Below the pieces are notes generated by a model. It ran no database searches and was not told where the DNA came from. It worked only from the letters and a program-made list of their open reading frames with translations. Position numbers and translations under genes: made by a program. From contig CACXEY010000275.1 of NCBI GenBank assembly GCA_902766695.1, positions 1 through 36,230 on the forward strand: DNA of 36,230 nt. The letters are read 5' to 3'. The stretch is from an uncultured bacterium. Lineage in GTDB: Bacteria; Verrucomicrobiota; Kiritimatiellia; CAIQIC01; Lenti-01. Below are positions 12,757-34,369 of this stretch, in pieces (position 1 is the first letter of the stretch; the number at the start of each line of letters is the position of its first letter).

Positions 12757-13434
12757 ATGAAACACCCCCTCCCTTCTTCCCTTCCCCTCGCCTCCTCCGC
12801 GTCTCCGCGTCTCCGCGCGAGTCATTCCTCTCCGCGTCTCCGTCTCTCTGCGTCTCTGCGTGAGTTCCGTGCTTCCTCCACCGCCGCCTTCACCCTCGTC
12901 GAGCTCCTCGTCGTCATCGTCATCCTCGGCATCCTCCTCGCCATGATGGTTCCCGCCGCCGGCATGATTCTCAAGCGCGTCAAGGTCGCCCAGGCCCGTT
13001 CCGACGCCCAGGTCGTCGTCGCCACCATGTCCAAGTACCGCCTCGAATACAACCGCTGGCCCGACGTCAAGGAAGTCGCCGAAGGCTACGCCGGCACCTC
13101 CAAGGAGTGGGTGGACATCATGAATCCCGACATCACCACCGGCACCTCCGCCAAGCGCGACCCTAACAACTTCCGCCAGCTCCGCTTCCTCGAAATGGGC
13201 AAGGGCATGAGGATCGAGTCCGGCACCCACGAAGGCGGCTTCGGCGACCCCTTCCCCCACAAGGACGGCCGCGTCCCCTTCCTCTACGCCATCGACGACG
13301 ACGGCGACGGCCACGTCAAGAACCCCGACCCCGACAAGGGCGGCGAACTCATCCGCGCCGACGTCGTCGCCTGGTCCGCCGGCCCCGACGGCGATTACAG
13401 GAGCTGGGAAGACAACGTCACCTCCTGGGAATGA
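12757..13434 (+). CDS. Pseudopilin, GspG-like (3), with repeat-derived leader
   Basis: 225 residues from the ATG at 12757, which has AAAGGA upstream in a spacer almost identical to the one before the previous gene. The helix FTLVELLVVIVILGILLAM begins at residue 45, so the leader is 44 residues, and -1 is Ala instead of Gly. The leader is built from repeated CTCCGCGT/CTCTGCGT units. The mature part includes a DPFPHKDGRVPFLYAIDDDG segment and ends SAGPDGDYRSWEDNVTSWE, a variant GspG tail. Confidence 0.8.
   Translation: MKHPLPSSLPLASSASPRLRASHSSPRLRLSASLREFRASSTAAFTLVELLVVIVILGILLAMMVPAAGMILKRVKVAQARSDAQVVVATMSKYRLEYNRWPDVKEVAEGYAGTSKEWVDIMNPDITTGTSAKRDPNNFRQLRFLEMGKGMRIESGTHEGGFGDPFPHKDGRVPFLYAIDDDGDGHVKNPDPDKGGELIRADVVAWSAGPDGDYRSWEDNVTSWE
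12790..12868 (+). repeat. Degenerate tandem repeat CTCCGCGT/CTCTGCGT within a coding leader
   Basis: Short runs of TCTCCGCG and TCTCTGCG alternate through this stretch. Sequences of this type are common intergenic repeats in several bacterial phyla (recalled, not searched). Here they encode residues of the form SPRLRLSASLR. Confidence 0.6.
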
Positions 13435-13447
13435 CCCCTGGAATTCA

Positions 13448-13621
13448 GAAAACAACTCAGGACAACTCGAAAACAATGAACCCGACAACTTCCCCTACCG
13501 GCCTCCCCCCTCCTTCCCGTTCGCCGTTCCCGGCAAATGGATTACGGGCTTGGAAGTCTGAAAGGCTCCGTTGTTTGCCCTCCTTGTCCATTTTCAGAAG
13601 AAGTTGTCCCGAGTTGTTTTC
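13448..13621. repeat. 174-nt segment with 20-bp terminal inverted repeats (MITE-like)
   Basis: Left arm 13448-13467 and right arm 13602-13621 are inverted copies with 19 of 20 matches; 134 nt lie between. It covers the end of the intergenic gap and the leader codons of the next pseudopilin gene. No transposase is encoded, and a target duplication longer than CA was not seen. Confidence 0.6.
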
Positions 13622-14414
13622 CAAAAAGTCCGCCTTCACCCTCATCGAGCTCCTCGTCGTCGTCGCCATCATCGGCGTCCTCTTCGCCATCGCCATCCCC
13701 GTCTTCGGCAACGCCGGGCGCAAGGACACCTACCGCGCCGCCCAGCAGGTCGCCACCACCCTCCGCCTCGCCCGCCAGCACGCCATCTCCAAGCGCCAGT
13801 GGACCTTCGTCATCTTCCCCAACCGCGACGGCACCTTCTCCGCCGACCCCAAGGCCCTCAACAACATCAAGAAGTGCCTCCGCAGCTACGCCGTCGTCGC
13901 CGTCACCAACAACATGGACAAGTGGCGCTCCAACGCCGACGAAGGCCCCGTCGTCAACGGCAACGAATCCACCGGCAAGATGTATTTCGAGTTCGTCTCC
14001 GACTGGAAGTACCTGCCCGAGGGCGTGTATTTCGACGACACAACCCCCGGCTCGGGCGACGGCGAGCAGAAAGGCAATTACGTCTTCGCGGGCAAGGGCG
14101 GCACCGGCTACGACGCCTCCAGCGCCTCCCAGTTCAAGTTCCCCTACGACCCCGCGAACCCCAACCAGTCCAGCAAGCAGATGATCATGAGCGCCGTCCT
14201 CTTCAAGCCCAACGGCCGCTACTTCATGATGCAGCAGAGCGGCAAGAAGCACTGGCTCGACCAGAAGTCCGTCCGCCTCTACCTCACCTCCGCCCGCTAC
14301 TACGAATTCGACGGCCAGTCCTCCCTGGCCGAGCCCGTCGCCATCCCCGGCACCAACACCATGCTCCAGTTCCAGGCCAAGACCGGCATGGTCAAGATTC
14401 TGGACGCCAACTGA
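13476..14414 (+). CDS. Pseudopilin, GspH/FimT-like
   Basis: 312 residues from ATG 13476; an ATG at 13431 overlapping the previous stop is also in frame. From 13476 the leader is 53 residues. A TTG at 13614 would give a normal short leader (MFSKKSA before FTLIELLVVVAIIGVLF) and lies inside the right arm of the inverted repeat, so the start is uncertain. After the helix, YRAAQQVATTLRLARQHAISKRQWTFVIF, shown here as a landmark in two parts (YRAAQQVATTLRLARQHA and ISKRQWTFVIF), is the segment typical of GspH/FimT minor pseudopilins. It probably caps the pseudopilus with the GspI-, J- and K-like products. Confidence 0.8.
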   Translation: MNPTTSPTGLPPPSRSPFPANGLRAWKSERLRCLPSLSIFRRSCPELFSKKSAFTLIELLVVVAIIGVLFAIAIPVFGNAGRKDTYRAAQQVATTLRLARQHAISKRQWTFVIFPNRDGTFSADPKALNNIKKCLRSYAVVAVTNNMDKWRSNADEGPVVNGNESTGKMYFEFVSDWKYLPEGVYFDDTTPGSGDGEQKGNYVFAGKGGTGYDASSASQFKFPYDPANPNQSSKQMIMSAVLFKPNGRYFMMQQSGKKHWLDQKSVRLYLTSARYYEFDGQSSLAEPVAIPGTNTMLQFQAKTGMVKILDAN

Positions 14415-14432
14415 CCGGAAAGGACCCCCGGC

Positions 14433-14996
14433 ATGAACACTCCGAATCCATCCCCCGCCCGCTCCAATGCCGGCTACTCGCTGGTGGAAGTCACCCTCGC
14501 CCTCCTCGTGGTCGCCATCGGGCTGACTTCGACCTTCTCGCTCTTCCCCGAGGCGATGAAGAACACCCGCACCGCCGTCAGCGACACCGAAGTCGCCCTC
14601 TTCGCCGACTACGTCTTCAGCACCCTTGCCGTCGGAGCCGCCGTGGACGGCGCCAACTTCAAGATCAACGACACCGACAACTACGCCTCCCTCGTCCTCG
14701 CGCAGAAACACCTCGACAAGATCGAGCTCAAGACCGGCTCCCTCGCCAACTTCTACTGGATCCCGGAAGACGACGACATGGGCACCGGCGACTGGGACCT
14801 CGCGGAAGACGCCGGCTACTGGTCCACCGCCTTCTCCTACCGCCTTTCCTACGGCCGGCGCAACAAGGGCAACAACCGCGACACCATCTACGCCACCCTC
14901 GAAGTCTGGCCCGGCGAATGGAAGTCCATCGCCGACGAGAAGACCTTCAAGCCCTACGTCTTCTACCGGGAAATCCTCCCGTACCCCAACCTGTGA
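14433..14996 (+). CDS. Minor pseudopilin, GspI-like
   Basis: 187 residues. A 14-residue leader ends in Gly before YSLVEVTLALLVVAIGLTST, with Glu at +5 and Tyr instead of Phe at +1. GGAAAGGACC precedes the ATG. The first 40 residues and the place in the operon, between GspH-like and GspJ-like genes, point to GspI; the rest shows no clear motif. GspI nucleates the tip complex with GspJ and GspK in known systems. Confidence 0.75.
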   Translation: MNTPNPSPARSNAGYSLVEVTLALLVVAIGLTSTFSLFPEAMKNTRTAVSDTEVALFADYVFSTLAVGAAVDGANFKINDTDNYASLVLAQKHLDKIELKTGSLANFYWIPEDDDMGTGDWDLAEDAGYWSTAFSYRLSYGRRNKGNNRDTIYATLEVWPGEWKSIADEKTFKPYVFYREILPYPNL

Positions 14997-20490: not shown

Positions 20491-20623
20491 ATGCGGTGAG
20501 GCCTTTTGACCGCCCATTCTCCCCCGGCGCGGCAGGATGCCGCCCCCCCGGAAGTGGCGCAGGACCTCCTGAACAAGCATCGCGTGACTTCCGGAGGTGC
20601 GGCGTCCAGCCGCTCCGCTGGAT

Positions 20624-20663
20624 GTGAGATTACGGAAAACATTGGTCTTTTCGCTTGTTTTCC
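20624..20663 (+). repeat. 40-nt intergenic repeat, copy C
   Basis: Core TGAGATTACGGAAAAC at 20625-20640 and CTTGTTTTCC at the end; a 7-bp stem GGAAAAC/GTTTTCC with a longer loop than in copy A. Confidence 0.7.
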
Positions 20664-20714
20664 GCTTTCCAGACGCCCCGCGGACGTCCCGCCCGCCCCC
20701 CGACTGCATATCCG

Positions 20715-20801
20715 CGAAGGGTTGAAGGGTTGAGGGAGTGGGCCGTCCTTCATCTTTTCAACCTTTCACCCTTTCACCCTTTCAACTTTTCAACCTTTCA
20801 C
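20715..20801. repeat. Inverted cluster of TTCAACC/TTTCACC units upstream of the RND gene
   Basis: GGGTTGA units at about 20718-20734 face repeated TTTCAACC and TTTCACCC units at 20754-20801 and can pair to a long imperfect stem. Third short-unit repeat family in the window. The gap 20443-20907 holds no gene. Confidence 0.6.
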
Positions 20802-20824
20802 CGGGCTTCCTTGCACATTCGCCC

Positions 20825-20854
20825 TTGCGGGGGGAGGGGGGAAATGGGTAGGAT
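20825..20854 (+). promoter_or_regulatory. Possible promoter of the RND-channel gene
   Basis: TTGCGG (20825-20830), 18-nt spacer, TAGGAT (20849-20854), 53 nt before the ATG. A short stem (CTCCGC/GCGGGG) lies in the leader. Confidence 0.35.
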
Positions 20855-20907
20855 GGGGGGTCTCCGCGCAATGCGGGGAGTTGTGTCTGCAAGGAAAGGT
20901 GTCATCC

Positions 20908-23900
20908 ATGTTCAGCAAAATCTTCATCGACCGGCCGAGGCTCGCGTTCGTGTGTTCGATCGTGCTCATGCTCGCGGGGGCCATCTGCGTGACGAAACTG
21001 CCCGTGGAGGAGTATCCCGACATCGCGCCGCCCCAGATCTACGTGATGTGCAATTACCCCGGCGCCACTTCCCAGACGGTCCTCGACACGGTCGGCACCG
21101 CCATCGAGTCGGAAATCAACGGGGTGGACGGGCTGCTCTACTACTCCGCCAACGCGGAGGACAACGGGAATTTCTTCGCGCAGGTCTATTTCCAGCCCGG
21201 CACCGACACCGACATCGCCATGGTCAACGTCCAGAACGCCGTCAAGCGCGCCGAGCCCTCCCTCCCCGAGGAGGTCACCCGCCAGGGCGTGCGCGTGAAC
21301 AAGCAGTCGAGCGACATCCTCGGCGTGTACGCGTTCATGACCGACGGCTCGCACATGAGCTCGATGGAGCTGAACAACTACGTCTCGAAGAACATCGCCG
21401 ACGCGCTCTCCCGCGTCGACGGCGTCGGCTCCATCACCGGCATGGGCGACACCTACGCGATGCGCATCTGGCTCGACCCCGTACGCATGGACGGCCTCGG
21501 GGTCACGGTCGCCGAGGTCAACGCCGCGGTCGCCTCGCAGAACCTGCAGGCGACGGCCGGCAGCGTCGGCGGCGAGCGCGCGAACCCGTACGTGCAGTAC
21601 CGCATCAGCACGATGGGCCGCCTGCAGACGCCGGAGCAGTTCGAGAACATCGTGGTCCGCACGGACGCGGCGGGCAACGTGCTGCGCATCCGGGACATCG
21701 GCCGCGCGGAGCTGGGGGCGGAGATGACGTCGTTCATCGGCGAGTTCAACGGCCGCGGCGCCGTCGCCATGCTCGTCTACCGCGACACCGGCGCCAACGC
21801 CGTCGGCACCAGCGCCCGCGTCAAGGCGGAGCTGGAGCGCTGGCGCGAAAGGCTGCCCGAGGGGGTGGACTTCCAGCTGACGTACGACCCGTCGCAGTCG
21901 GTCATCGTCTCGCTCAAGGAGACGGCGTTCACGCTGGTGCTGACGCTGTGCCTGGTGATTCTCATCACGTACCTCTTCTTGCAGGACTGGCGGGCGACGA
22001 TCGTGCCGGCGGTGGCGATCCCGGTCTCGCTGCTGGGGGCGTTCCCGTTCGTGTACGCGCTGGGGTTCTCGCTGAACACGCTGACGCTCTTCGGCCTGGT
22101 GCTGGTGATCGGGTCGCTGGTGGACGACGCGATCGTCGTCGTCGAGAACTGCCAGTCCCTCATGCAGCGCGAAAAGCTCTCCGCCCGCGCCGCCGCCATC
22201 AAGTGCATGGAGCAGATCACCGGCGCCATCATCGCGACGACGCTCGTCACCGTCGCCTGCTACGTCCCGCTCGCGTTCTACGGCGGCATGGTCGGCACCA
22301 TCTACGTGCAGTTCGCCGTGACGATGTGCGTGTCCCTCTGCATCTCGACCTTCGTGGCCATGACCCTCTCGCCGGCCCTCTGCTCCCTCGTGCTGCGGCC
22401 GCCGCGCGAGAAGCCCGCGAAGATCTTCGCCCCCTTCAACCTCCTCGTGGACGGCTCGCGCAAGTTCAGCAACGTGTTCGTGGGTTTCCTGGTGCGGCGG
22501 AGCGTGTTCGCGGTCGCGATCCTGGCGCTCTTCGTCGCGGGCATCTGGGGCGTCTCCAAGCTCGTCCCCGGCTCCTTCCTGCCCGAAGAGGACAAGGGCA
22601 TCGTCTTCTGCGACATCGGCCTGCCCGAAGGCGCCTCCCTCGAGCGCACCATGGACTCCGTCCGCGCCTTCCGCGACAAGACCGCCATGGTCCCCGAAGT
22701 CGACCGCACCATGGCCATCGCCGGCTTCGGCATGATCAACGGCGCCGGCGAATCCTCCGGCATGCTCATGGCCGGCCTCAAGCACTGGGACGACCGCGCC
22801 GGCAAGGGCCAGGACGCCGCCTCCCTCAAGAACAAACTCATGGGCCTCGGCATGACCCCCGTCGGCAGCGACCCCGACTCCCTCGCCGCGCAGACCGACT
22901 CGCGCGTCATCTGCTTCACCCCGCCCGCCATCCAGGGCCTGGGCATGACCGGCGGCCTCTCCCTCTACCTCGCGAGCGACGGCTCCCTCAGCTCCTCCGA
23001 ACTCGCCGCGGCCGCCGACAAACTCGCCGTCGACATCCAGCAGCTCACCGATTCCAAGGGCCGCAAGCTCGCCGCCTCCGCCAACAACTCCTTCGTCGCC
23101 AACACCCCCAAACTCTACCTCGACGTCGACCGCGAAAAAGCCATCTCCCTCGGCATCAACATCTCCCAGCTCTTCTTCACCCTCCAGTCCCAGCTCGCCA
23201 GCTACTACATCAACGACTTCAACATGATGGGCGAAGCATTTTATGTCAAGATGCAGTCCGAGCAAACCTCCCGCACCAGCGAAGAATCCGTCCTCGCCCT
23301 CCAGATCCCCACCGCCTCCGGCGGCAGCGTCCCCCTCTCCACCATCGCCACCCTGCGGCACGAAAAGAGCTCCCGCGTCCTCCAGCGCTACAACAAGATG
23401 AACGCCGCCAAACTCACCGCCCAGTGCGCCCCCGGCGTCCCCACCAAGACCCTCATGGACGCCATCGAAACCATCCCCCTCCCCAAAGGCTGCTCCATCG
23501 AATGGACCGACATGTCCTTCCAGGAAAAACAGAACCAGGGCCAGATCGTCTCCCTCATGGCCCTCGCCCTTCTGTTCGCCTTCCTCTTCCTCGTCGCCCA
23601 GTACGAGAGCTGGTCCATCCCCGTCCCCGTCATGCTCACCGTCGCCACCGCCACCTTCGGCGCCATGCTCGGCATCTGGGCGTGCAGCGGCAGCTGGGGC
23701 CTCGCCCACGGATTCGGCAGCGCCGGGTCCCTCTCCATCTACGCCCAGCTCGGCCTCGTCATGCTCATCGGCCTCTCCGCCAAGAACGCCATCCTCATGG
23801 TCGAATTCTCCAAACAGGAACGCGAAGCCGGCCAACCCATCCCCGAAGCCGCCCGCAACGGCTTCAACATGCGCTACCGCGCCGTGCTCATGACCGCCTG

Positions 23901-25497
23901 GAGCTTCATCTTCGGCGTCATCCCCCTCGTCTTCGCCTCCGGCGCCGGCTGCAACAGCCGAATCGCCATCGGCGTCACCACCTGCGCCGGGATGCTCATG
24001 GCCACCTTCGTCGGCATCCTCCTGACCCCCGGCCTCTACGCCTTCTTCCAGACCCTCCGCGAAGGCGTCAAACACCTCATCCACATGAAAACCTCCGTCG
24101 AAATCGCCGCCGAACACCGCGCCGAAGAAGCCGCCCGCGCCAAAGCCCGCGCCGCCGCCGCCGCCAAGACCCTCGCCCTCCTGCTGATTGCCGGCATCAC
24201 CGCCATCCTCGCCACCGGCTGCGGAACCATCCGCATGGCCCGCGACGCCCAGGCCACCGACACCGAACGCACCCTCCTCTGGACCGAGACCCCCTTCGCC
24301 GAACAAACCCCCATCCCCGTCGAAGCCCTCGCCCAGTGGGCCCGCACCAACGTCCCCGCCGTCGTCCAGGCCCGCGAAGACGTCGTACAGGCCCAGATCG
24401 CCCTCCGCTCCATCAAAGCCTCCTACATCCCCGTCATCGACGGATCCATCGCATATACGTATGCCTCCGCCAACATCGACCCCCACGACACCTCCTGGGA
24501 CGGCGACGGCGCCTGGGACGGCAAACTCACCCTCAACTGGCTCCTCTTCGACTTCGGCCGCACCCCGGCCGCCACCCGGCAAGCCGTCGCCCGCCTCGCC
24601 GCCGCCGACCAAGCCGCGCGCGCCGCCGAACAGACCGCCGCCTACAACGTCCGCGCCGCCTGCTTCGAACTCCTGCGCAAGACCGAACTCCACGCCGTCG
24701 CCCAGGCCAACGCCGCCGCCTACAAAGACCACCTCGAACAGACCCAGCACCGCTACGACGTCGGCGCCGTCACCAGCTACGAAGTCTCCAAGGCCCGCGT
24801 CGATTCCGAGAACGCCCGCCTCGCCGAAATCGTCGCCGCGCACGGCGTCCAGACCGCCCGCGCCGGCCTCGCCCTCGCCCTGGGCCTCGCCGAAAACCCC
24901 GACATCGACCTCCAGCCCCTCGAAACCGCCCCCGACACCCGAACCCTCGACGACCTCTGGGCCATCGCCCAAACCAACGCTCCCGCGCTCGCCGCCCTGC
25001 GCGCCGCCGCCGACGCCGCCAAAAACTACGTCGACTGGACCATCTGCGACCTCTACCCCAAACTCTCCCTGACCCTCACCTTCGACGCCCAAGGCGACTC
25101 CACCCCGCTTTTGTGGAACTACGCCGCCGTCCCCGCCGCCGCCCAGACCCTCTTCGCCGGCCGCGCCAAGACCCGCCAGATCGAGACCGCCGTCTCCCAA
25201 CTCCGCGCCGCCCGCTCAAAGCTGGCCGCCGCCGAACAGACCCTCTACAACACCCTCCTGAACGCCACCCTTTCCGCCCAAAGCGCCCAGGACGCCCTCG
25301 ACGTCGCCCAAAGCGCCGCCGCCGCCGCCCAGGAAAACTTCGACATCGTCTCCAGCCGCTACGACGTCGGCAAAGCCAGCGTCCTCGAACGCACCGACGC
25401 CCAAGTCGCCCTTTCCCGCGCCCAAGCCGAAGTCGTCACCGCCCGCTACAACCTCCTCGACACCCGCATCCTCATCACCCGCCTCATCGGCGAGTGA
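20908..25497 (+). CDS. RND efflux pump fused to TolC-type outer-membrane channel
   Basis: 1529 residues in one open frame; ATG 20908 has AAGGAAAGG upstream. Residues 1 to about 1050 are a complete HAE1-type (AcrB-like) pump: MFSKIFIDRPRLAF start, LPVEEYPDIAPPQIYV, the porter domains, TM4 with VDDAIVVVEN (D406, D407) and TM10 with SAKNAILMVEF (K959), so the proton relay is intact. Residues 1060-1529 are a TolC-family channel: charged stretch, hydrophobic LALLLIAGITAILATGC with lipobox Cys 1105, then two OEP halves, each with RYDVG (QHRYDVGAVTSYE, SSRYDVGKASVLE). No stop or frameshift separates the two parts. No adaptor (HlyD/AcrA) gene is adjacent. If signal peptidase II cuts before Cys 1105, the channel would be released as a lipoprotein from a polyprotein. 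Start at Met 1060 by internal initiation is the alternative. Confidence 0.92.
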   Translation: MFSKIFIDRPRLAFVCSIVLMLAGAICVTKLPVEEYPDIAPPQIYVMCNYPGATSQTVLDTVGTAIESEINGVDGLLYYSANAEDNGNFFAQVYFQPGTDTDIAMVNVQNAVKRAEPSLPEEVTRQGVRVNKQSSDILGVYAFMTDGSHMSSMELNNYVSKNIADALSRVDGVGSITGMGDTYAMRIWLDPVRMDGLGVTVAEVNAAVASQNLQATAGSVGGERANPYVQYRISTMGRLQTPEQFENIVVRTDAAGNVLRIRDIGRAELGAEMTSFIGEFNGRGAVAMLVYRDTGANAVGTSARVKAELERWRERLPEGVDFQLTYDPSQSVIVSLKETAFTLVLTLCLVILITYLFLQDWRATIVPAVAIPVSLLGAFPFVYALGFSLNTLTLFGLVLVIGSLVDDAIVVVENCQSLMQREKLSARAAAIKCMEQITGAIIATTLVTVACYVPLAFYGGMVGTIYVQFAVTMCVSLCISTFVAMTLSPALCSLVLRPPREKPAKIFAPFNLLVDGSRKFSNVFVGFLVRRSVFAVAILALFVAGIWGVSKLVPGSFLPEEDKGIVFCDIGLPEGASLERTMDSVRAFRDKTAMVPEVDRTMAIAGFGMINGAGESSGMLMAGLKHWDDRAGKGQDAASLKNKLMGLGMTPVGSDPDSLAAQTDSRVICFTPPAIQGLGMTGGLSLYLASDGSLSSSELAAAADKLAVDIQQLTDSKGRKLAASANNSFVANTPKLYLDVDREKAISLGINISQLFFTLQSQLASYYINDFNMMGEAFYVKMQSEQTSRTSEESVLALQIPTASGGSVPLSTIATLRHEKSSRVLQRYNKMNAAKLTAQCAPGVPTKTLMDAIETIPLPKGCSIEWTDMSFQEKQNQGQIVSLMALALLFAFLFLVAQYESWSIPVPVMLTVATATFGAMLGIWACSGSWGLAHGFGSAGSLSIYAQLGLVMLIGLSAKNAILMVEFSKQEREAGQPIPEAARNGFNMRYRAVLMTAWSFIFGVIPLVFASGAGCNSRIAIGVTTCAGMLMATFVGILLTPGLYAFFQTLREGVKHLIHMKTSVEIAAEHRAEEAARAKARAAAAAKTLALLLIAGITAILATGCGTIRMARDAQATDTERTLLWTETPFAEQTPIPVEALAQWARTNVPAVVQAREDVVQAQIALRSIKASYIPVIDGSIAYTYASANIDPHDTSWDGDGAWDGKLTLNWLLFDFGRTPAATRQAVARLAAADQAARAAEQTAAYNVRAACFELLRKTELHAVAQANAAAYKDHLEQTQHRYDVGAVTSYEVSKARVDSENARLAEIVAAHGVQTARAGLALALGLAENPDIDLQPLETAPDTRTLDDLWAIAQTNAPALAALRAAADAAKNYVDWTICDLYPKLSLTLTFDAQGDSTPLLWNYAAVPAAAQTLFAGRAKTRQIETAVSQLRAARSKLAAAEQTLYNTLLNATLSAQSAQDALDVAQSAAAAAQENFDIVSSRYDVGKASVLERTDAQVALSRAQAEVVTARYNLLDTRILITRLIGE

Positions 25498-25540
25498 CCT
25501 GGCGTCCTTTTTCCCATCCCCTCAGCATCCCGGTCCTGCC

Positions 25541-25725: not shown

Positions 25726-25878
25726 CCAAGCCCGCCCCCGGCTTGTCAACCGCAAACTGCCGCAACTTGAAGCAATCCGCCCTCTCCCGCGCCCAAGCCG
25801 AAGTCCTCCCCGCCCGCCACAACCTCCTCGGCACCCGCATCCTCATCACCTGCCCCATCGGCGAGTGACCCGCCGCGA
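25726..25878 (+). repeat. 153-nt composite direct repeat, left end of the accessory island
   Basis: About 95% identical to 34419-34572 (six mismatches and one indel by hand alignment). The first about 50 nt equal the sequence upstream of the two island surface-protein genes (also 31452-31502). Positions 25778-25868 repeat the last 91 nt of the RND-channel gene (25407-25497) with seven mismatches, down to the IGE-stop codons. The minus strand carries the -35-like TTGACA (25744-25749) but no -10. Confidence 0.85.
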
Positions 25879-25944: not shown

Positions 25945-27093
25945 TCATGGGACCGGGGCTTCTTCTGCATCTTTTTCGGCCATTCTGTTTTCGATGGCGG
26001 CAATGGCCTCTTCCATGCCTTTCCTTGCCAATGGGGCGGGAGCGTTGTCCTTGGCGGTTTCCAGCGCTCTCAAGGTCTTCTGCCCTCCACGCTCCCCCAG
26101 CAACATGATTCCTACGCCACGAACTTGGCTTGAAGAATGGGAGAGCATTGGAATCAAAGACTCCAAATCATCCTCTTGCCCCATGTCGGCCAAAGCCGAA
26201 GCCGTGTCAACAATCACGATTTCATCCGCTCTTGTTTCCCTCTGCAATCGCGAAACGAAATATTCCTTCAGCCGGACAACAACCCCTGACTTGTCCCCTT
26301 GCGACGATCTCAAAATGGCAAGTGCCGAACTGACAACATAGGGATCGTCGCACTCCCTGACGACTGCCAGCAAGCCTTCGTAGGCCGATTTGCCTTGTTC
26401 CACCAACCGACGGTGCGCCATGACCTGGTTCTCGTCCTCGCTGTCTATTCCTTTGGGCAACAGCGCCCAAACCTCGGCCGCGGTCATCTCGCTGTCCGTC
26501 TGTGCACATGGCGACACGGCAAGTGCGGGCGTTCCTTCGGCATGAGTCACATCTGGGAATGTCGCCGCTGGTTCTTCAGAAAACGGCATTGGCAGATTGG
26601 CAGCTTTCTTTTCCAGCCTGTCCGTGAAATGGCGGGCCACCGCTCGGACATCTTCGCTTGGATGGGACAACAAGGGCTGAAGAAGCTGCTTGTCGTTTTC
26701 ATTGCCTATGTCCGATATCGTCTTGGCCAACAACATGAGCATTCGTTCGTTTGGTGGATTGGTAAGCAGCTGTTTTTCCTGAAGTACTTTTCCCAATTCG
26801 GCAACCACCACCCGCTTGTCTCCCTTTGTTTCGCGCAACACCCCCAAAGCCCGGCTGGCAATGAGTGAATTGGTATTCGAACGCACGATATTCAGAAGCG
26901 CTCCGTAAATGGATTCGCCCTGCTCAACCAATTTCAAGTGATCCGCAATGTCGTTGTTGTCAAAGTCGGGGCCTTTCGGCAACAATGCAAGCACTTCGGC
27001 CGCAGTCATTCCGCCTTCAGCCATGGCGCATGGCACCAGCACCGCCACCATGGCCATAAAAGCCAACAGCAAATAATTACTTTTTATCGACAT
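25945..27093 (-). CDS. Exported HEAT-like protein 3 with two modules (immunity candidate)
   Basis: 382 residues. GAGGAG precedes the ATG at 27093. A Sec signal peptide (MSIKSNYLLLAFMAMVAVLV, ending about AMA) is followed by two copies of one module, about residues 30-170 and 205-382. Each has LLPKG..D.., a VEQG segment, a VR..... SLIAS/VVSSALAILR helix, GDK..VV..L, a LADMGQEDDLESLIPML helix and VRGVGIMLLGERGGQ. The helical-pair layout suits HEAT repeats. The tail is acidic and ends EEAPVP. The module matches the two genes upstream. Likely a periplasmic binding protein, possibly an inhibitor of the protease two genes further up. Visibly lower GC than the core genes. Confidence 0.75.
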   Translation of the reverse strand: MSIKSNYLLLAFMAMVAVLVPCAMAEGGMTAAEVLALLPKGPDFDNNDIADHLKLVEQGESIYGALLNIVRSNTNSLIASRALGVLRETKGDKRVVVAELGKVLQEKQLLTNPPNERMLMLLAKTISDIGNENDKQLLQPLLSHPSEDVRAVARHFTDRLEKKAANLPMPFSEEPAATFPDVTHAEGTPALAVSPCAQTDSEMTAAEVWALLPKGIDSEDENQVMAHRRLVEQGKSAYEGLLAVVRECDDPYVVSSALAILRSSQGDKSGVVVRLKEYFVSRLQRETRADEIVIVDTASALADMGQEDDLESLIPMLSHSSSQVRGVGIMLLGERGGQKTLRALETAKDNAPAPLARKGMEEAIAAIENRMAEKDAEEAPVP

Positions 27094-27190
27094 GTGAATC
27101 TCCTCTGATCTTTGTTTCTTCCGAATCCGACAATCTTCTCGATCCAGCGGCCCCGTTCGTTTCCGTGAACGTGAACATCAACCGCCATTT

Positions 27191-27238
27191 GTAACATTCG
27201 GGTCTGGCCCCTTTTTCGTTTTCCAAACCGACCACTTG
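27191..27238 (+). repeat. Short repeat between HEAT genes 2 and 3
   Basis: GTAACATTCGG...CTGGCCCCTTTTT then AACCGACCACTTG. Both halves recur on the other side of HEAT gene 3 (25701-25725 and 25911-25923), so the gene is bracketed by copies. Confidence 0.6.
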
Positions 27239-27259
27239 CCCCGTTGCGTCATGGCCCGG

Positions 27260-27907
27260 TCATGGGGCCTCCGGCATCTCCTCATCCTGCCCGGCAAGCC
27301 TGCTTGTGATACTTGTTACCGCCTTGTTCATTTCATCCAATACCAGATTGTTGGATTCACGGCTTTTCGCTTCTTCAAGTGCCTCAATGGCTTGTTGGTC
27401 TCCACGCTGCCCAAGATATTGCGCACCCAGATAGCGCACCCGCATGTTTGGGTGCTCAAGCATGGGCAACAGGACATCAATATCATCCTCCGTGCCAAAA
27501 TCTGCCAGGAATTGTGCAATGCTTGTCAGCAACCAATCATCTTGACCTTCGGAACGGCACAAACGCTCGCTGAAAAAAGGTTTCAGTTCGGCGACAATCC
27601 CGCTCTTGTCTCCAGTCGTTTCCCTCAAAATCGCCAAGGCACTCGTGGCCACCATCCAGTCGTCGCATTGCTTTACAATTGCCAACATGGCTTCATGGCA
27701 AGCCTCTCCTTCATCGACCAGTTTCTGGATTCTGTCATTGATTTGCTCGTCTTCGTAATCCAGCACCTTTGGGAGCATTTCCCATTCCGGGTAATTCCGG
27801 TAGGTCATTCCGGGCGGAGTTTCCGCAGATACGGACAACGTGTCCGCCACCATCAAGACGGCCGCCAAGAGTACAAACCACAGGGCAGTCTTGGATTCAT
27901 TGAACAT
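27260..27907 (-). CDS. Exported HEAT-like protein 2 (immunity candidate)
   Basis: 215 residues. ATG 27907 is preceded by AAAGGAG; an ATG at 27949 overlapping the previous stop is less likely. Signal peptide about residues 1-28 (ALWFVLLAAVLMVADT, ending SAE). The mature part is one module: YPEWEMLPK, LVDEGEACHEAMLAIVKQC, SALAILRETTGDKSGIVAEL, FGTEDDIDVLLPMLEHP and VRYLGAQYLGQRGDQQ, ending DEEMPEAP. Clear paralogue of its neighbours on both sides, so a product of tandem duplication. Acts outside the cytoplasmic membrane if exported. No enzyme motif is seen. Confidence 0.78.
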   Translation of the reverse strand: MFNESKTALWFVLLAAVLMVADTLSVSAETPPGMTYRNYPEWEMLPKVLDYEDEQINDRIQKLVDEGEACHEAMLAIVKQCDDWMVATSALAILRETTGDKSGIVAELKPFFSERLCRSEGQDDWLLTSIAQFLADFGTEDDIDVLLPMLEHPNMRVRYLGAQYLGQRGDQQAIEALEEAKSRESNNLVLDEMNKAVTSITSRLAGQDEEMPEAP

Positions 27908-27945
27908 GTTATTCTCCTTTCTCCCCGCTGGTGTGGCGTGTAGTG

Positions 27946-28599
27946 TCAAGGTCCAGTCATGGGGAGAGGGGAAGATTCGTCGGCATTCTGCACGGCAAGT
28001 CTGGATTCGATGGAAGCAATGGCTTTGCCGATTTCTTCGTTCACCCGCTTGTTGGCATCACGTCCTTGTACCTGTTCCAAGGCCTCCAATGCGCGCTGGC
28101 CGCCACGTCGGCCAAGATAACGTGCCCCCATGACACGCAAGCGTATATCGGGGTTTGTCAGCATCGGCACCAACACATCCATGTCGCTTTCCGTTCCAAT
28201 GTCCGCAATTGCCGCGGCGATACCGTCAACAATCCACGATTCGTCTCCAGTGGCTGGCGGAAAACGCTGTTCGAAAATCCGTTTCAACTCCGCAACAACG
28301 GGCCGTTTGTCGCCTGCCGATTCTCTCAAAGTCGCCAATGCGCGACTTGCAATCATGGAGTCATCGCACTCCCTGACGACTGCCAGCATGGCTTCATTGG
28401 CCGCCGGTCCTTCATCGACCAATTGACGAATGGCAGCAATATCGTCTTCGTCATCGAAATCGATTCCCTTGGGCAAAAGATTCCATTCTGGATAGTCCAT
28501 ATATGTTTTTTGCCCATTGGATTCAGCCGTTGCCAGCAACACCAAGAAAAACAACATTCCGACTGAACAAACAAATCTGATTGGCAAGTTATTGTACAT
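27946..28599 (-). CDS. Exported HEAT-like protein 1 (immunity candidate)
   Basis: 217 residues. Its ATG (28597-28599) lies inside the last codons of the protease-tipped gene, an 11-nt overlap that ties its translation to that gene. Signal peptide about residues 1-26 (FVCSVGMLFFLVLLATAES). Mature part: DYPEWNLLPKGIDF, LVDEGPAANEAMLAVVREC, ASRALATLRESAGDKRPVV, IGTESDMDVLVPMLTNP, VMGARYLGRRGGQRALEAL. The DNA near 28365-28395 is almost identical to 26340-26375 in HEAT gene 3, so duplication is recent. Position directly after a secreted protease domain, export and copy number all suit an immunity protein; not proven. Confidence 0.78.
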   Translation of the reverse strand: MYNNLPIRFVCSVGMLFFLVLLATAESNGQKTYMDYPEWNLLPKGIDFDDEDDIAAIRQLVDEGPAANEAMLAVVRECDDSMIASRALATLRESAGDKRPVVAELKRIFEQRFPPATGDESWIVDGIAAAIADIGTESDMDVLVPMLTNPDIRLRVMGARYLGRRGGQRALEALEQVQGRDANKRVNEEIGKAIASIESRLAVQNADESSPLPMTGP

Positions 28600-31402
28600 G
28601 CTGTGTATTATCCTTGATTGTAGTTTCTTCCTCTTCCACAAAACGCCTTGTCCCCGTAACTCCATACCGTGTGCTTCGATACATAACCCGCCAGCCATCC
28701 GAGACATGCCCGGCATTCGTCAACAAATGACCAAGCTCGTGGGCAATGGAACCTCCTGCACTTTCATCATAATTATTCGCGTTCAGAAAGATGTTATACA
28801 GGTAATTTGTGTCAGCCGGACTCTTGAAACCAAAAGCGGCAACAGCCATGCCGCCAAGTTCCCGTTCGCCTGCCCAAAGATGGTTCGCAATAATCAGATG
28901 TATGTCATCCAAAGTATTTGTAGTCCCGACCCCTTCGATGACGGCTTTTGCCTCTGGGGCTAGTGTTGTTGCAGTATACGTTGGACGCAGCGTAAGCCCG
29001 TCAAACAAATCGACGCCAACTGGAGGCTCACAAATGACGGGGGTATCCCATTCAAGACAGATTCCCATCTGTGCATATCTCTTTCGTGCAATTCGCAAGA
29101 AATCAGCAATTCTATCTGCAGTGAGTACAACATAATTGCTGCTGGTCAACGATGGATCATGCAAAAAAACTGGGATAATATGGACCGTTTTTTCCGATGG
29201 AACAGTAATCTCAGCATCCATCCATGTTCCCTCCTCCGGTTCGTATTGCACAAGAACACGCCCGTCCAGTGCAATTTTGTGAGTCTGATCATTGAAATAA
29301 TCATCCGGCGGAATTGGGCCGTTGTATCCATCGTCAATTTCATCAGCGACAAGAAGTTGGTTTGTGGAAAGGAATATCCCTGAATTGATTGGTTGTTCAA
29401 TCAACTCTATCAACGTCATGTCATCACATAGGTCGGTATCTTCGGAACTAGTACCCAAATCTAAGTAGACAGGTCCAGCTCCCATCTTGCTTGCATCAAT
29501 TACCCGCACCATGAAACGATCGGAATCAAGATCAATGAAGTTGTCTTTCAGAAACCAATTCGTAGTGATGGTAATTTCGACATCGATAGGGTTCGTTGTC
29601 ACCACGATGTTCGTTTCGATAACGGTATTGAACGCATTTTCCCACTTCCCGATTTTCAGCTCTGACGCCGGCAAGCTGCTGCCTCCGGCAAGGAAATCGA
29701 TCTGCACCACCGTCACGGCTTGTGTCGCGGTGCATCCGGCGCAGTCCGTGGCCGTCACGACCGTCACGCCGGGTGCCAGCCCCGTCAGCACTCCGTTCCC
29801 GTCGATGCCCGCGACTCCATCGTCGGGCACCGTCCATTCGTAAGGGCCGCCACCTTCCTGCGAGGCCATCATCTGGATGGTTTTTCCGACCTGCACATAC
29901 GACGGCCCCGTCACCGCCGAGACGTGCGGGCCGAGGTTGGTCGCGTACATGATTTCCGCGAAGGCATCCGAGTGCCATTTGTGCCCACCCGTGTCGTACG
30001 TGAGCTCCACCGTGCTGCCCTCGAGAATCAGGCAGTTCAGCACGGCCGAGGTCGCCACCATCAGGCAGTACTCTTCCGTCGGGCCGTCCGGAATGCCGTC
30101 ATGGCTGGAAAAGCAGTCGTAGTTCGTGTCGGCCGTGAACGTCACGACATCGAATCCGGCATCCACGTCTTCGACGTTGCCGTCGATTTGCAGTGCGATG
30201 TGGTATCCGCTGTCGAACATGTTGTCCACCTCCAGCTGGGCGGTCTCGACTTGATGGGTGTCATTGGAGCCTCCGCAATCCAGCGAGTCCTCCACTTGCG
30301 CACGGAGACCGTGCCAGTTGGTCGTCACCGAGCGGGAGTTCGTCGTGACGGTGCAGCTGACATGCGTCAAGCGGTACGCCAATTCCGCGCCGGTCCACAA
30401 CGGGTCGTCCATGGGGGCGTCCATGGACAGCTCCAAGCCGTCATCGAAGCCGTCCCCGTCCGTGTCTTCGTCCCCCGGATTCGTGTGGTACACGAACGAC
30501 TCCCAGCCGTCGTTCAGCCCGTCCCCGTCCGTGTCCTGGGCCACGACCGCCGCGTAGAAACGGAGCCGGGACAGCTCCTCGGAGAACCCAGAATCCTCGA
30601 ACTCCGCCACCCCGTTGCTGATGGGCACCGTGCCGCGCTGTTCCCAGTCGCTCTCCATCCCGTTGAACGGTAAGCCGACCGAAGTCCAGACGGTGTTCGT
30701 GTCGGTGACAACCTGGTTCTCGTCGTTCGTCCACGTCGCCACCACAAGGGACGAAGTACAGGCCACCGCGTAGGCGAAAATGTCCACGTTCGTGTCAATC
30801 TCGTACGCCAGCTCCAGCCGGAAGGTGCCGTTCGTCGTCCACTCGTGCGCCGTGAAGCGCAATCCATTCGTCGGTGTCGTCCGCATCGGGGGCGCGGGCG
30901 TCCTGACAACGGTGTCCGTCATGGCCGCCACCGCATCCCGCACGCCCTCGTAGGCCGCCCAGCCCTCCTCAGCCACCAGGCCACCCGTCAGCACCACGTC
31001 CGCCGATTCCGGGCGGGCGAAGTCCGTCCAGCCGCGCCACAGCACCGCCCCGTCGCCGTCCTTCACGACCGTCAACCCGGCATCCTGCGACACCTCGATT
31101 GGGACCACCCACGCCCCGTATTCCCGGTCGGCAGCCGCGGCCTCCCAGCTCGCGCCGAACTCCTCCCATGCCGCCGGCCATGTCCCGACGTCCTGCACCA
31201 GCGCCACGTCCGGCGGCGTGATGCGCCGGTACATGTTCCGCAGGATTTCCGCCCGGTCCGCCAAGTCCTCCTCACCCAGCACCACGGCGTCGTCCGGCTC
31301 CTCCGCAGGGGACCCGGCCTCCCCCGTGCCCGTTGCCAGCGCGGCCGCGCCGGCCAGGAGCGCGGCAACTCCAAGGCAAACCGCCCAAACGTGTTTCTTC
31401 AT
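28589..31402 (-). CDS. Exported TSP3 protein with C-terminal zincin protease domain (polymorphic toxin-like, P1)
   Basis: 937 residues. ATG 31402 has GGAAAGG 6 nt upstream. Signal peptide about 1-25 (KKHVWAVCLGVAALLAGAA). Residues to about 320 are nearly the same as in the gene at 34369 and end in TSP3 calcium repeats (DTDGDGLNDGWESF, DTDGDGFDDGLE). After that the two differ completely. P1 continues with beta-rich regions, a Big2/Ig-like domain (about 490-568, VQVGKTIQM...LAPGVTVVTA) and a C-terminal domain with IAHELGHLLTNAGH (H888, E889, H892, third His 899) and a following VMY that could be the Met-turn. This is a zincin metalloprotease site, with one residue more between the second and third His than in metzincins. 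GC falls clearly below about 29650. Followed by three HEAT-like genes. Confidence 0.85.
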   Translation of the reverse strand: MKKHVWAVCLGVAALLAGAAALATGTGEAGSPAEEPDDAVVLGEEDLADRAEILRNMYRRITPPDVALVQDVGTWPAAWEEFGASWEAAAADREYGAWVVPIEVSQDAGLTVVKDGDGAVLWRGWTDFARPESADVVLTGGLVAEEGWAAYEGVRDAVAAMTDTVVRTPAPPMRTTPTNGLRFTAHEWTTNGTFRLELAYEIDTNVDIFAYAVACTSSLVVATWTNDENQVVTDTNTVWTSVGLPFNGMESDWEQRGTVPISNGVAEFEDSGFSEELSRLRFYAAVVAQDTDGDGLNDGWESFVYHTNPGDEDTDGDGFDDGLELSMDAPMDDPLWTGAELAYRLTHVSCTVTTNSRSVTTNWHGLRAQVEDSLDCGGSNDTHQVETAQLEVDNMFDSGYHIALQIDGNVEDVDAGFDVVTFTADTNYDCFSSHDGIPDGPTEEYCLMVATSAVLNCLILEGSTVELTYDTGGHKWHSDAFAEIMYATNLGPHVSAVTGPSYVQVGKTIQMMASQEGGGPYEWTVPDDGVAGIDGNGVLTGLAPGVTVVTATDCAGCTATQAVTVVQIDFLAGGSSLPASELKIGKWENAFNTVIETNIVVTTNPIDVEITITTNWFLKDNFIDLDSDRFMVRVIDASKMGAGPVYLDLGTSSEDTDLCDDMTLIELIEQPINSGIFLSTNQLLVADEIDDGYNGPIPPDDYFNDQTHKIALDGRVLVQYEPEEGTWMDAEITVPSEKTVHIIPVFLHDPSLTSSNYVVLTADRIADFLRIARKRYAQMGICLEWDTPVICEPPVGVDLFDGLTLRPTYTATTLAPEAKAVIEGVGTTNTLDDIHLIIANHLWAGERELGGMAVAAFGFKSPADTNYLYNIFLNANNYDESAGGSIAHELGHLLTNAGHVSDGWRVMYRSTRYGVTGTRRFVEEEETTIKDNTQHVQ

Positions 31403-31451
31403 CTGCGCCTTTCCGGGCGGAACGCCAAGCTCCGCCTTTGCTCCCACCATC

Positions 31452-31502
31452 CCAAGCCCGCCCCCGGCCTGTCAACCGCAAACTGCCAGAACTTGAAGCA
31501 AA
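31452..31502 (-). promoter_or_regulatory. Upstream repeat of P1 with promoter-like boxes
   Basis: A 51-nt copy of the sequence upstream of P2 (34419-34469), two mismatches. On the minus strand TTGACA (31470-31475), 18-nt spacer, GATGGT (31446-31451), about 45 nt before the ATG. The similarity fades near 31503, 13 nt before the neighbouring gene's stop. Confidence 0.55.
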
Positions 31503-31515
31503 TCGCCATCTGGCT

Positions 31516-31977
31516 TCATTGGAAATAGCCATCTTCTTCCAGCGCCTGGATTGCATAATCACATGGCAACGCCTTGTTCGTAATTGTCCCCACCTTGAGC
31601 AAATCGGCCGCGTATTCGCTTGCCGGGTAGTTGGGCATCAGCTCCAATGCACTCTGGGCGTCATCCATGACCACGGGGCGGACTGCGGAAAAAGACACGG
31701 ACTCGATCTGCGGAGCGACACGCAGGATTTCCGCCGCCGTGTTGGTCGCTGCCGAAAGCTGGAGATACTCGCTTTCATACTCGAACTTGAGTAGCAGTCC
31801 CGGTAAATCATTCGTGTCCGCAGCCAGCCTCTCCTGGGCGATAGCCAGCACGCCGGCATAGTTCCCGGCCCGCCACATGCCCTCCACCTGCGAAGCGAAG
31901 CCTTGTCCTCTGGCAGTTCCCAAGACACGAAAGCACAGCAGGCAGCCAATCATTCCAATCTTGATTGTCGTGTTCAT
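31516..31977 (-). CDS. Small exported helical protein after P2 (immunity candidate)
   Basis: 153 residues. GAGGAG lies just before the ATG at 31977, and the restored P2 frame stops at 31987, 9 nt upstream, so the two are tightly linked. Signal peptide about 1-24 (IKIGMIGCLLCFRVLGT ending ARG). The mature part is helical, with TPR-like spacing (MWRAGNYAGVLAIAQERL, EYESEYLQLSAATNTAAEIL). It is unrelated to the HEAT-like proteins. By position it is to P2 what the HEAT proteins are to P1. No known family recognised. Confidence 0.65.
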   Translation of the reverse strand: MNTTIKIGMIGCLLCFRVLGTARGQGFASQVEGMWRAGNYAGVLAIAQERLAADTNDLPGLLLKFEYESEYLQLSAATNTAAEILRVAPQIESVSFSAVRPVVMDDAQSALELMPNYPASEYAADLLKVGTITNKALPCDYAIQALEEDGYFQ

Positions 31978-31986
31978 TGTTCTCCT

Positions 31987-32349
31987 CTATGGATTCTCCA
32001 TGTACAAAAAACCCGGTGATGTAAATTCCGTGTCGGGATTGCGCCAAAGCGACGGTGCGATGAAATTGTCGACGGGAGCGGAATTCGGCCACAGGCGGCG
32101 ATTTTTGGCGTCTGATTCATTCCAGATGTCCTTGAGCATGTTACGGACGGTCGCAGTATAATCAGCCCCACTGGCAACCGCCTGCCCCGCTTGCCAGCTT
32201 TTTGTGGCTGCTCCGTCGTTCCACGTGCCTATGGTTTGCGCTATCCAAGATGCAATGCCGGAAACCCCGATTTTCCGCACCGCATATCCGACAATGAAAT
32301 TGCTGGCCTTGGCAATCCGGATGGGATATCCTTTCCAAGTGCAGACGGC
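31987..32349 (-). pseudogene. Frameshifted 3' part of P2 (true C-terminal domain)
   Basis: About 120 codons in the +1 frame relative to P2. Removing one base from the C5 tract at 32349-32353 joins ...DQFWHG to AVCTWKGYPIRIAKASNFIV and gives a 793-residue protein ending MENP at 31987, just before the next gene. The fragment has no start of its own with a ribosome-binding site. Motifs NFIVGYAVRKIG and DYTATVRNMLKDIW are of no family I can name. Confidence 0.7.
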
Positions 32350-34369
32350 CCCCATGCCAAAATTGATCCGCCGTGTTGACTTGGTTGTAGCACCAGACGG
32401 TCGGGGCATTGGCATTGTTCGGACGGCTTAGATAATCACCGGCCCCGTTGTTCACGAACCATCTCCGTCCATTGTTCGGGCGCTGTTTTTCCCACCACAT
32501 GTATTTTGCATTCACTTTTGCGGCAAACGCATCCGCCAATGCCAAATCTGCGACCACGACGCTGCCGATTTCCGCCCCGGCAAGCGGCAGCACCACATTG
32601 GCTTGGCTGGGCACTTCTCCGGGGTAGCCGAGGCCAAACGAGAAGGAATAGACTCCGCCCTGCTGCGGATTGCGCAAGGTTGCGGAGAGGGTGTTGGTGG
32701 CAAGCAAGGTCCCTGATGCAGGACCGGACATCCGGGTCCACTGGGGTGTCCACTCCTCGACAGGAAAAGCATCAGGCGTGATGGTAGCCGCAAGCGACAC
32801 ATCGAAATTGGCAACCACGAAATTGCCGGCAGCATTCATGTCGGCAACATCCTCGAAAAACACCACCAGATGCTTGTCCGGTTCCGGACTGTGGGTGACA
32901 TCGAACGGCCATGGCCGGTGCCCGGCAAACGGCGGGGGATTGGGGGATGCTCCGGCAACGGGGGATGCCACGTCCAACACCACCCCCAGCGGCACAAGCC
33001 ATGTCCAGTCCACCTCGAATGAACCCGATCGCGAATTTCCGAGACTGACTTCGTTTGGGCCGGCATAATCCGGCGAAGGATGATCCCAGAGTCTCAGCTG
33101 GAATGCGTGGGACTCAGGATGGTCGATGAGGTTCAGTATTCCCTGATGATAGTAATTCGTGGGGCCGGGGTTGGAATCGACGTCGGTACCGTCCACCGAA
33201 ATGATGTCGTCCACATGGCCGCTGACCCAGACATTGCTGACCACGCTGTCGGAAGTCGGTGCCGCTCCGACAATGTTCCAGGTCCAGTCATCGTTGCCGA
33301 CCCTCGGGGCGTTGCTTGGGCAGTCTCCAAGAAACTGCCAGTAATTCACCGTGTTCTGTGTCACCACCTCAAACCACACATTCGACGTGGCCGGCATCGT
33401 GTCCATCCCGTCCGGCACCCCGTCCCCGTCCGAATCCTGGTTGCCGGGATCCGTGTGCGATACGAAGTCCTCCCAGCCGTCGTTCAGCCCGTCCCCGTCC
33501 GTGTCCTCCGCCACGGCGGCCGCGTAGAAGCGCTCCCGACCAAGAGTCGCCGAAAAACCCGAATCCTCGAACTCCGCCACCCCGTTGCTGATGGCGACCG
33601 TACCACGCAGCTCCCAATCGCTCTCCATCCCGTTGAACGGCAACCCGGCCGAAGTCCAGACGGTGTTCGTGTCCGTCACGACCTGGTTTTCGTCGTTCGT
33701 CCACGTTGCCACCACAAGTGACGAAGTGCAGTCCAGCGCATAGGCGAACACGTCCACGTCCGTGTCGATCTCGTACGCCAGCCCCAGGCGGAACGTGCCG
33801 TTTGTCGTCCATTCGTGGGACGTGAACCGCAGGCCGTTCGCATGGTTGCTCCGCACTGGGGGCGTGGGTGTCCCGCCCGCGATTCCCAAACGCACCACGG
33901 CATCCCGGATGCTTTCGTAGACCGCCCACTCCTCCTCCGCCACCAGGCCGCCGGTCAGGACCACGTCGGCCGATTCCGGGCGGGCGAAGTCCGTCCAGCC
34001 GCGCCACAGCACTGCCTCGTTTCCGTCGCGCACCACCGTCGCCCCGGCGTCCTGCGTCACCTCGATTGGGACCACCCACGCCCCGTATTCCCGGTCGGCA
34101 GCCGCAGCCTCCCAGCTCGCGCCGAACACCTCCCAGGCCGCCGGCCACGTCCCCACGTCCTGCCTTAACGCCACGTCCGGCGGCGTGATGCGCCGGTACA
34201 TGTTCCGCAGGATTTCCGCACGGTCCGCCAAGTCCTCCTCCCCCAGCACCACGGCGTCGTCCGGCTCCTTCGCTGGGGACCCGGCCTCCCCCGTTCCCGT
34301 TGCCAGCGCGGCCGCGCCGGCCAGGGCCGCGGCAACTCCAAGGCAAACCGCCCAAACGTGTTTCTCCAT
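32162..34369 (-). CDS. Exported TSP3 protein with unassigned C-terminal domain, frameshifted (polymorphic toxin-like, P2)
   Basis: 735 residues as read; 793 if the one-base shift at 32349-32353 is corrected. ATG 34369 has GGAAAGG upstream. Signal peptide (EKHVWAVCLGVAAALAGAA) and about 320 residues shared with P1, including ADREYGAWVVPIEV, NGLRF and EWTTNGTFRL, ending in TSP3 loops (DTDGDGLNDGWEDF, DSDGDGVPDGMD). The next 300 residues are beta-rich and unique. The C-terminal domain starts near ADAFAAKVNAKYMWWEKQ. The last about 60 residues of the frame as read are His/Arg-rich and look like out-of-frame sequence. GC drops below about 33370, where similarity to P1 stops. Either inactivated, phase-variable, or a sequencing error. 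Confidence 0.8.
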   Translation of the reverse strand: MEKHVWAVCLGVAAALAGAAALATGTGEAGSPAKEPDDAVVLGEEDLADRAEILRNMYRRITPPDVALRQDVGTWPAAWEVFGASWEAAAADREYGAWVVPIEVTQDAGATVVRDGNEAVLWRGWTDFARPESADVVLTGGLVAEEEWAVYESIRDAVVRLGIAGGTPTPPVRSNHANGLRFTSHEWTTNGTFRLGLAYEIDTDVDVFAYALDCTSSLVVATWTNDENQVVTDTNTVWTSAGLPFNGMESDWELRGTVAISNGVAEFEDSGFSATLGRERFYAAAVAEDTDGDGLNDGWEDFVSHTDPGNQDSDGDGVPDGMDTMPATSNVWFEVVTQNTVNYWQFLGDCPSNAPRVGNDDWTWNIVGAAPTSDSVVSNVWVSGHVDDIISVDGTDVDSNPGPTNYYHQGILNLIDHPESHAFQLRLWDHPSPDYAGPNEVSLGNSRSGSFEVDWTWLVPLGVVLDVASPVAGASPNPPPFAGHRPWPFDVTHSPEPDKHLVVFFEDVADMNAAGNFVVANFDVSLAATITPDAFPVEEWTPQWTRMSGPASGTLLATNTLSATLRNPQQGGVYSFSFGLGYPGEVPSQANVVLPLAGAEIGSVVVADLALADAFAAKVNAKYMWWEKQRPNNGRRWFVNNGAGDYLSRPNNANAPTVWCYNQVNTADQFWHGGRLHLERISHPDCQGQQFHCRICGAENRGFRHCILDSANHRHVERRSSHKKLASGAGGCQWG

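What the first reader, a model, noticed from the sequence alone, without database searches (positions are those of the whole stretch)
20908..25497. AcrB-type pump and TolC-type lipoprotein channel encoded as one polyprotein
A complete HAE1 pump with its proton relay (D406, D407, K959) runs without a stop into a complete outer-membrane channel. A lipobox (LATGC, Cys 1105) sits at the joint behind a hydrophobic stretch that would serve as a thirteenth membrane segment. Fusions of heavy-metal RND pumps with TolC domains are known to me in Bacteroidetes; this drug-type version with an internal lipoprotein signal suggests maturation by signal peptidase II. The adaptor gene is missing locally.
Basis: partly seen in the sequence, partly recalled or inferred. 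Interest (0 to 1): 0.75.

Follow-up and report, generated by a model that had tools for sequence, protein, structure and literature searches.

The report
Drug pump–outer channel polyprotein with built-in cleavage
One gene encodes both the inner-membrane drug pump and its outer-membrane exit channel, and the joint keeps the channel's own signal peptide, so the cell most likely makes one chain and cuts it in two; the same kind of joint recurs in every such fusion examined from three bacterial groups.

Summary
Confirmed: 20908-25497 is one 1529-codon frame, a complete HAE1 RND pump (aa 1-1047) joined to a complete TolC-type channel (aa 1105-1529). It is fused, with only in-frame indels, in a same-genus genome (98%) and a second genus (84%); both halves are under purifying selection. 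The "thirteenth membrane segment" is the channel's lipoprotein signal peptide: in close relatives the channel is a separate downstream gene with its own N-terminal lipoprotein signal, and the pump ends in a charged tail containing the equivalent of Met 1060. So Met 1060 is pump tail, not a channel start. I read 74 pump-channel fusions (Kiritimatiellae 29, Verrucomicrobiae 12, Bacteroidota HAE1 2, Bacteroidota CusA type 31). All 74 carry a cleavable-looking signal peptide at the joint: 39 with a lipobox cysteine, 35 with a signal-peptidase-I site. All 31 CusA fusions obey the Bacteroidetes "Q-rule" there, which makes sense only if cleavage occurs. HAE1 fusions fall into ten clades. Best reading: a polyprotein cut after translation into equimolar pump and channel. 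The adaptor is absent from the window, but its orthologue lies on contig C155 and adjoins the pump in relatives. Cleavage itself is not shown.

The parts
20908..25497 (+). fused pump-channel gene, 1529 codons plus stop
20908..24048 (+). HAE1-type RND pump domain, aa 1-1047
   Evidence: PF00873 905 bits; TIGR00915 over cut-off; CmeB/MexB/AcrB by sequence
22123..22128 (+). Asp406-Asp407 of the proton relay
   Evidence: invariant in A1; aligned to VDDAI of CmeB
23782..23784 (+). Lys959 of the proton relay
   Evidence: invariant in A1
24049..24165 (+). charged cytoplasmic tail of the pump, aa 1048-1086, containing Met1060 (24085-24087)
   Evidence: homologous to the C-terminal tail of unfused pumps, e.g. 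G301 'GMKTALEIAERRRAED...KSGK*'
24166..24219 (+). hydrophobic segment, aa 1087-1104: signal peptide of the channel acting as a thirteenth membrane segment
   Evidence: mean hydropathy 2.8, positive n-region, aligned to the N-terminal signal of the separate channel genes
24220..24222 (+). Cys1105, lipobox cysteine (LATGC), predicted new N-terminus
   Evidence: G1104 and C1105 are the only invariant columns between R1051 and L1141 in A1; 27 of 29 fusions of the class keep it
24220..25494 (+). TolC/OprM-type outer-membrane channel, mature part, aa 1105-1529
   Evidence: PF02321 twice; AlphaFold model pLDDT 81 matches TolC/OprM/CusC

Best explanation
The gene makes one polypeptide that serves as a polyprotein. 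The pump inserts with 12 membrane segments and a cytoplasmic tail. The former signal peptide of the channel then crosses the membrane as a thirteenth segment and carries the channel domain into the periplasm. Lgt lipidates Cys1105 and LspA cuts between Gly1104 and Cys1105. The channel lipoprotein goes to the outer membrane and trimerises; the pump stays behind. Pump and channel are thereby made 1:1, as the 3:6:3 tripartite complex needs, and meet the separately encoded adaptor (C155). Shown here: the single frame, its conservation, its derivation from two adjacent genes, and retention of the signal in every fusion examined. Inferred: lipidation, cleavage, sorting, stoichiometric benefit and drug efflux.
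For: One conserved frame in three genomes, dN/dS 0.16-0.23 in both halves, in-frame indels only. The signal segment changes fast in sequence between genera (dN 0.63) but keeps hydrophobicity and lipobox, as signal peptides do. 27 of 29 fusions of the class have [GAS]C directly after the segment, against 6 of 316 other membrane segments of the same proteins; the other two have AVA-Q and LSA-Q. Twelve Verrucomicrobiae fusions: ten lipobox; two that lost the Cys have A-X-A sites instead, ARA-G and ANA-G. In 31 of 31 CusA-channel fusions of Bacteroidota the segment is followed by [AGS]Q, control 6 of 343, matching the phylum's rule for cleaved type I signals (PMC5837995). HAE1 fusions form 10 clades separated by unfused pumps. 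Six fusions have no start codon before the segment, so read-through translation is needed. Geometry: intermembrane distance 23 nm (PMC4754349), but about 33 residues (at most 12 nm) separate Cys1105 from the first helix of the channel body. LspA is encoded. Adaptor orthologue present in the genome and adjacent to the pump in relatives.
Against: No protein-level evidence of cleavage was available. Fusions inside one clade share ancestry, so the counts are not independent; 10 changes is a parsimony figure from a FastTree tree and mixes gains and losses. No case of LspA cutting after an internal segment was found in the held literature. The G249 joint has two lipobox-like sites. G288 and G029 have an ATG just before the segment, so internal initiation is possible there.
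Confidence: 0.8

Rival explanations
1. The chain stays uncut: a permanently tethered pump-channel in which segment 13 anchors the channel to the inner membrane and a linker spans the periplasm.
For: The frame is continuous and a lipobox can exist without being used.
Against: About 33 residues cannot bridge from the inner membrane to the channel's N-terminus near the outer membrane in a 23-nm gap. A tether would not need an invariant Gly-Cys, A-X-A where Cys is lost, or +1 Gln in Bacteroidota.
Confidence: 0.1
2. Two products by separate translation: an internal start (Met1060 or a non-AUG codon) makes the channel, and the in-frame joint is incidental.
For: Met1060 lies upstream of the signal; G288 and G029 have an ATG close to the segment.
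Against: Met1060 is a pump-tail residue in unfused relatives and has no Shine-Dalgarno; L054, L096, L101, L104, L105 and L106 have no ATG, GTG or TTG before the segment. This path would still leave the fused product.
Confidence: 0.07
3. Assembly or sequencing artefact, or a decaying gene that lost a stop by chance.
For: The genome is a draft of 318 contigs, and nearby unfused pumps exist.
Against: Same joint in G001 and G002, purifying selection on both halves, in-frame indels; recurrent fusions elsewhere.
Confidence: 0.02

Closest known systems
CusA/CzcA-TolC fusions of Bacteroidota (TIGR00914 pump plus channel in one chain, about 1450 aa)
   Same: Same order of domains, and (found here) an internal signal peptide at the joint; common in the phylum.
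   Different: Heavy-metal pump family; type I signal with +1 Gln instead of a lipobox. The window's pump is HAE1 and fails TIGR00914.
HAE1 tripartite systems CmeABC, MexAB-OprM, AcrAB-TolC
   Same: Same pump family and channel fold; the channel is a lipoprotein as in OprM; the adaptor is an RND MFP protein.
   Different: Three separate genes there; pump and channel are one gene here.
FbcH cytochrome b/c1 precursor of Bradyrhizobium (from memory; no paper on it in the held library)
   Same: A polytopic membrane protein and an exported protein made as one chain and separated at an internal signal sequence.
   Different: Respiratory complex, type I cleavage, no outer-membrane product.
Separate pump and channel genes of close relatives (G301, G290, G284, G191)
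   Same: Orthologous adaptor, pump and channel in one operon; the channel is a lipoprotein.
   Different: Stop codon and own start at the joint; no thirteenth segment in the pump.

Membership tests
HAE1 RND pump (TIGR00915) | score over the curated cut-off, full length | tested here: met
   984 bits against 940, aa 2-1051
HAE1 RND pump (TIGR00915) | proton relay Asp-Asp and Lys | tested here: met
   D406, D407, K959 invariant, aligned with CmeB
HAE1 RND pump (TIGR00915) | drug transport | not testable with these tools
   needs an assay
TolC/OprM outer-membrane factor (PF02321) | two OEP repeats and the TolC fold | tested here: met
   two stretches, 160 bits; fold match to 1ek9, TMq 0.77
Lipoprotein (signal peptidase II substrate) | positive n-region, h-region, lipobox Cys, no Asp at +2 | tested here: met
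   +2 residue is Gly here; no Asp at +2 in any lipobox fusion listed
Lipoprotein (signal peptidase II substrate) | signal at the N-terminus | tested here: not met
   the signal is internal, behind 1086 residues; filed as 'works like', not as an ordinary member
Lipoprotein (signal peptidase II substrate) | lipidation and cleavage in the cell | not testable with these tools
   needs proteomics
CusA/CzcA-TolC fusion (HME type) | TIGR00914 pump | tested here: not met
   272 bits against 701
Tripartite RND system | RND adaptor in the genome | tested here: met
   G000:C155:4726-5856, 236.8 bits TIGR01730; orthologue next to the pump in G301 and G288

The most novel reading that the evidence does not exclude
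Pump-channel fusions form a widespread class of bacterial envelope polyproteins: about ten independent or re-split lineages of HAE1 pumps plus the CusA type keep a cleavable internal signal peptide, of either type, so that one translation product yields equimolar parts destined for two membranes.
Probability: 0.7. Interest if true: 0.75.

Novelty: new variant of a known kind. Interest (0 to 1): 0.64.

Why it matters
Polyprotein processing is common in viruses but little described for bacterial envelope machines. If the reading holds, signal peptidases I and II act inside polytopic proteins, and bacteria repeatedly use them to fix the ratio of two partners that live in different membranes. It also means that annotation tools, which look for signal peptides only at N-termini, miss lipoproteins and periplasmic N-termini inside longer chains. 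The Bacteroidota cases can be checked in existing proteomic data.

Tried and rejected
Artefact: rejected by G001 and G002. Start at Met1060: rejected from the unfused pump tails. Adaptor lost: rejected; orthologue found on C155. Some loci with long open frames or full-length matches in the genome searches proved unfused when read (e.g. L100, L103, L111, L113, L117, L317-L320, L341, L343, L344, L349, L350) and were not counted. A loose Q-site pattern gave 24 of 31; the misses were residues outside my -3 set or one wrong pump end, and the [AGS]Q count is 31 of 31. Literature searches for RND-channel fusions with internal signals found nothing in the held library; this does not prove absence elsewhere.

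Full report
OBSERVATION. The frame 20908-25497 encodes 1529 residues without a stop. ACR_tran covers aa 2-1047 and OEP matches twice in the C-terminal part. The pump passes TIGR00915 (984 bits, cut-off 940) and fails the CusA model (272 against 701), so it is HAE1 or drug-type; CmeB, MexB and AcrB are its closest solved relatives by sequence. The channel half was modelled from 11 relatives (mean pLDDT 81) and matches TolC, OprM and CusC (TMq about 0.8). The window is the whole of contig C275 in a 318-contig genome. The class is Kiritimatiellae: contig C34 of same-class genome G075 is that of a Kiritimatiellota record, NIOZ-UU71.

THE FUSION IS REAL AND MAINTAINED. G001 (same genus, 98%) and G002 (another genus of the family, 84%) have the same uninterrupted frame; G002 lacks the first 98 residues at a contig end. 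Indels at the joint are in frame (2 and 6 codons). dN/dS is 0.21 and 0.16 for the pump and 0.18 and 0.23 for the channel.

WHAT THE JOINT IS. In the nearest relatives with separate genes (G301, pump about 83% identical) the pump ends in GMKTALEIAERRRAEDAASRAAAEKAAAEAAARHASEAAAKSGK and a stop. A channel gene follows in another frame and starts MKINPSFATVLAALCAAGCATVENARRAQ. The fused protein has the same kind of pump tail (HMKTSVEIAAEHRAEEAARAKARAAAAAK), then TLALLLIAGITAILATGC, then GTIRMARDAQ. So the tail and Met1060 come from the pump; the hydrophobic segment and Cys1105 come from the channel's lipoprotein signal; the channel's start codon is gone. Separate lipoprotein channels also stand behind the pump in G284, G290, G289, G191, G192, G193 and G194.

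HOW GENERAL. In the class I read 29 fused frames: 27 have a lipobox cysteine right behind a hydrophobic segment, two (G051, G029) an A-X-A type site. Other membrane segments of the same proteins have [GAS]C in that position in 6 of 316 cases. In an alignment of eight fusions from five clades, G1104 and C1105 are the only invariant columns between R1051 and L1141. Twelve fusions in Verrucomicrobiae show the same: ten with a lipobox; the two that lost the cysteine (G728, G878) have ARA-G and ANA-G instead, so a cleavage site stays when the lipid site goes. Two HAE1 fusions in Bacteroidota have lipoboxes. Gln at +1 is the known rule for cleaved type I signals in that phylum, where the new N-terminal Gln is cyclised (PMC5837995). 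Such a rule acts on a free N-terminus, so its presence at an internal joint is good indirect evidence of cleavage. In sum 74 of 74 fusions read keep a signal peptide at the joint.

INDEPENDENCE. On a tree of 76 pumps of the class, fused and separate states change at least 7 times; the window's clade of three lies among separate-gene pumps. With Verrucomicrobiae, Bacteroidota and 70-odd named pumps added, at least 10 changes are needed and the 42 fused rows fall into 10 clades. Gains and losses are not told apart, and FastTree is a rough method.

TRANSLATION. The window has one in-frame ATG between the pump and the segment (Met1060), with no Shine-Dalgarno; six other fusions have none of ATG, GTG or TTG before the segment. 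The channel must then come from read-through of the pump.

MECHANISM. From knowledge of the pathway: RND pumps have both ends in the cytoplasm, so one further segment with a positive n-region puts the channel into the periplasm, the side on which Lgt and LspA act. LspA is encoded on C233. The residue after Cys is Gly, not Asp, so outer-membrane sorting is expected. An uncut tether would have to span a 23-nm gap (PMC4754349) with about 33 residues between Cys1105 and the helix at 34-44 of the channel model, at most about 12 nm; the position of the channel's N-terminus near the outer membrane is taken from known TolC structures. The complex contains pump and channel 3:3 (same paper), so a polyprotein supplies equal numbers.

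ADAPTOR. None is encoded in the window. The genome has five RND adaptors. The one on C155 (4726-5856) is the partner by three signs: its orthologue in G001 lies 6.5 kb upstream of the fusion on the same contig and strand; in G301 and G288 it directly precedes the pump; and it occurs in nine of the other ten searched genomes that hold this pump subclade, with identities like those of the pump (80% in G301), and at most as a 32% relative in four family members without it. In G296 the two genes are also apart, by about 3 kb. In the window's genome the locus has been rearranged further: only 20526-20740 and 20749-25499 of the window align to the 20 kb of G001 around the gene, apart from the short 3'-end repeats.

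LIMITS. Everything is inference from sequence; nearly all genomes are metagenome bins; no proteomic data could be searched. The held library has no paper on such fusions with internal signals, but it is not the whole literature.

VERDICT.

Noticed in passing
25404-25497, 25778-25870, 34471-34564 (+): The last ~93 bp of the fused gene occur again twice on this contig, 92% and 87% identical and not in a pump gene; no other copy in the genome. Looks like scars of local duplication or rearrangement.
   Followed up: partly
20526-20740: An intergenic stretch before the gene is similar (85%) to the one before the gene in G001, and that G001 stretch is similar (82%) to the end of contig C79 of the window's genome: a dispersed repeat near a synteny break.
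   Followed up: partly
L346 (G728) and L348 (G878), Verrucomicrobiae: Two fusions lost the lipobox Cys of a VGPDY-type channel but have ARA-G and ANA-G type I sites at the same joint.
   Followed up: yes
L274-L303, L218 (Bacteroidota): All CusA/CzcA-channel fusions read have an internal signal peptide with Gln after the predicted cut; testable in existing proteomes.
   Followed up: yes
L060:2754-4350 and L052:5544-7656: The region after the adaptor holds short repeats whose translation reads FFQWLENFPMVGK-like, a dispersed repeat in both genomes.
   Followed up: no
12163-14996 (+): Three consecutive proteins with a prokaryotic N-terminal methylation (pseudopilin-like) motif.
   Followed up: no
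28589-34417 (-): Two large proteins with weak bacterial TSP3 repeat matches, in tandem on the minus strand; HEAT-repeat proteins at 25945-28716.
   Followed up: no
window:20908-25497 against G003-G016: The pump's nearest relatives outside its clade are in another family of the class (f37, about 82%), while the best pumps of most other family f1 members are at about 41% or less: horizontal transfer is likely.
   Followed up: partly
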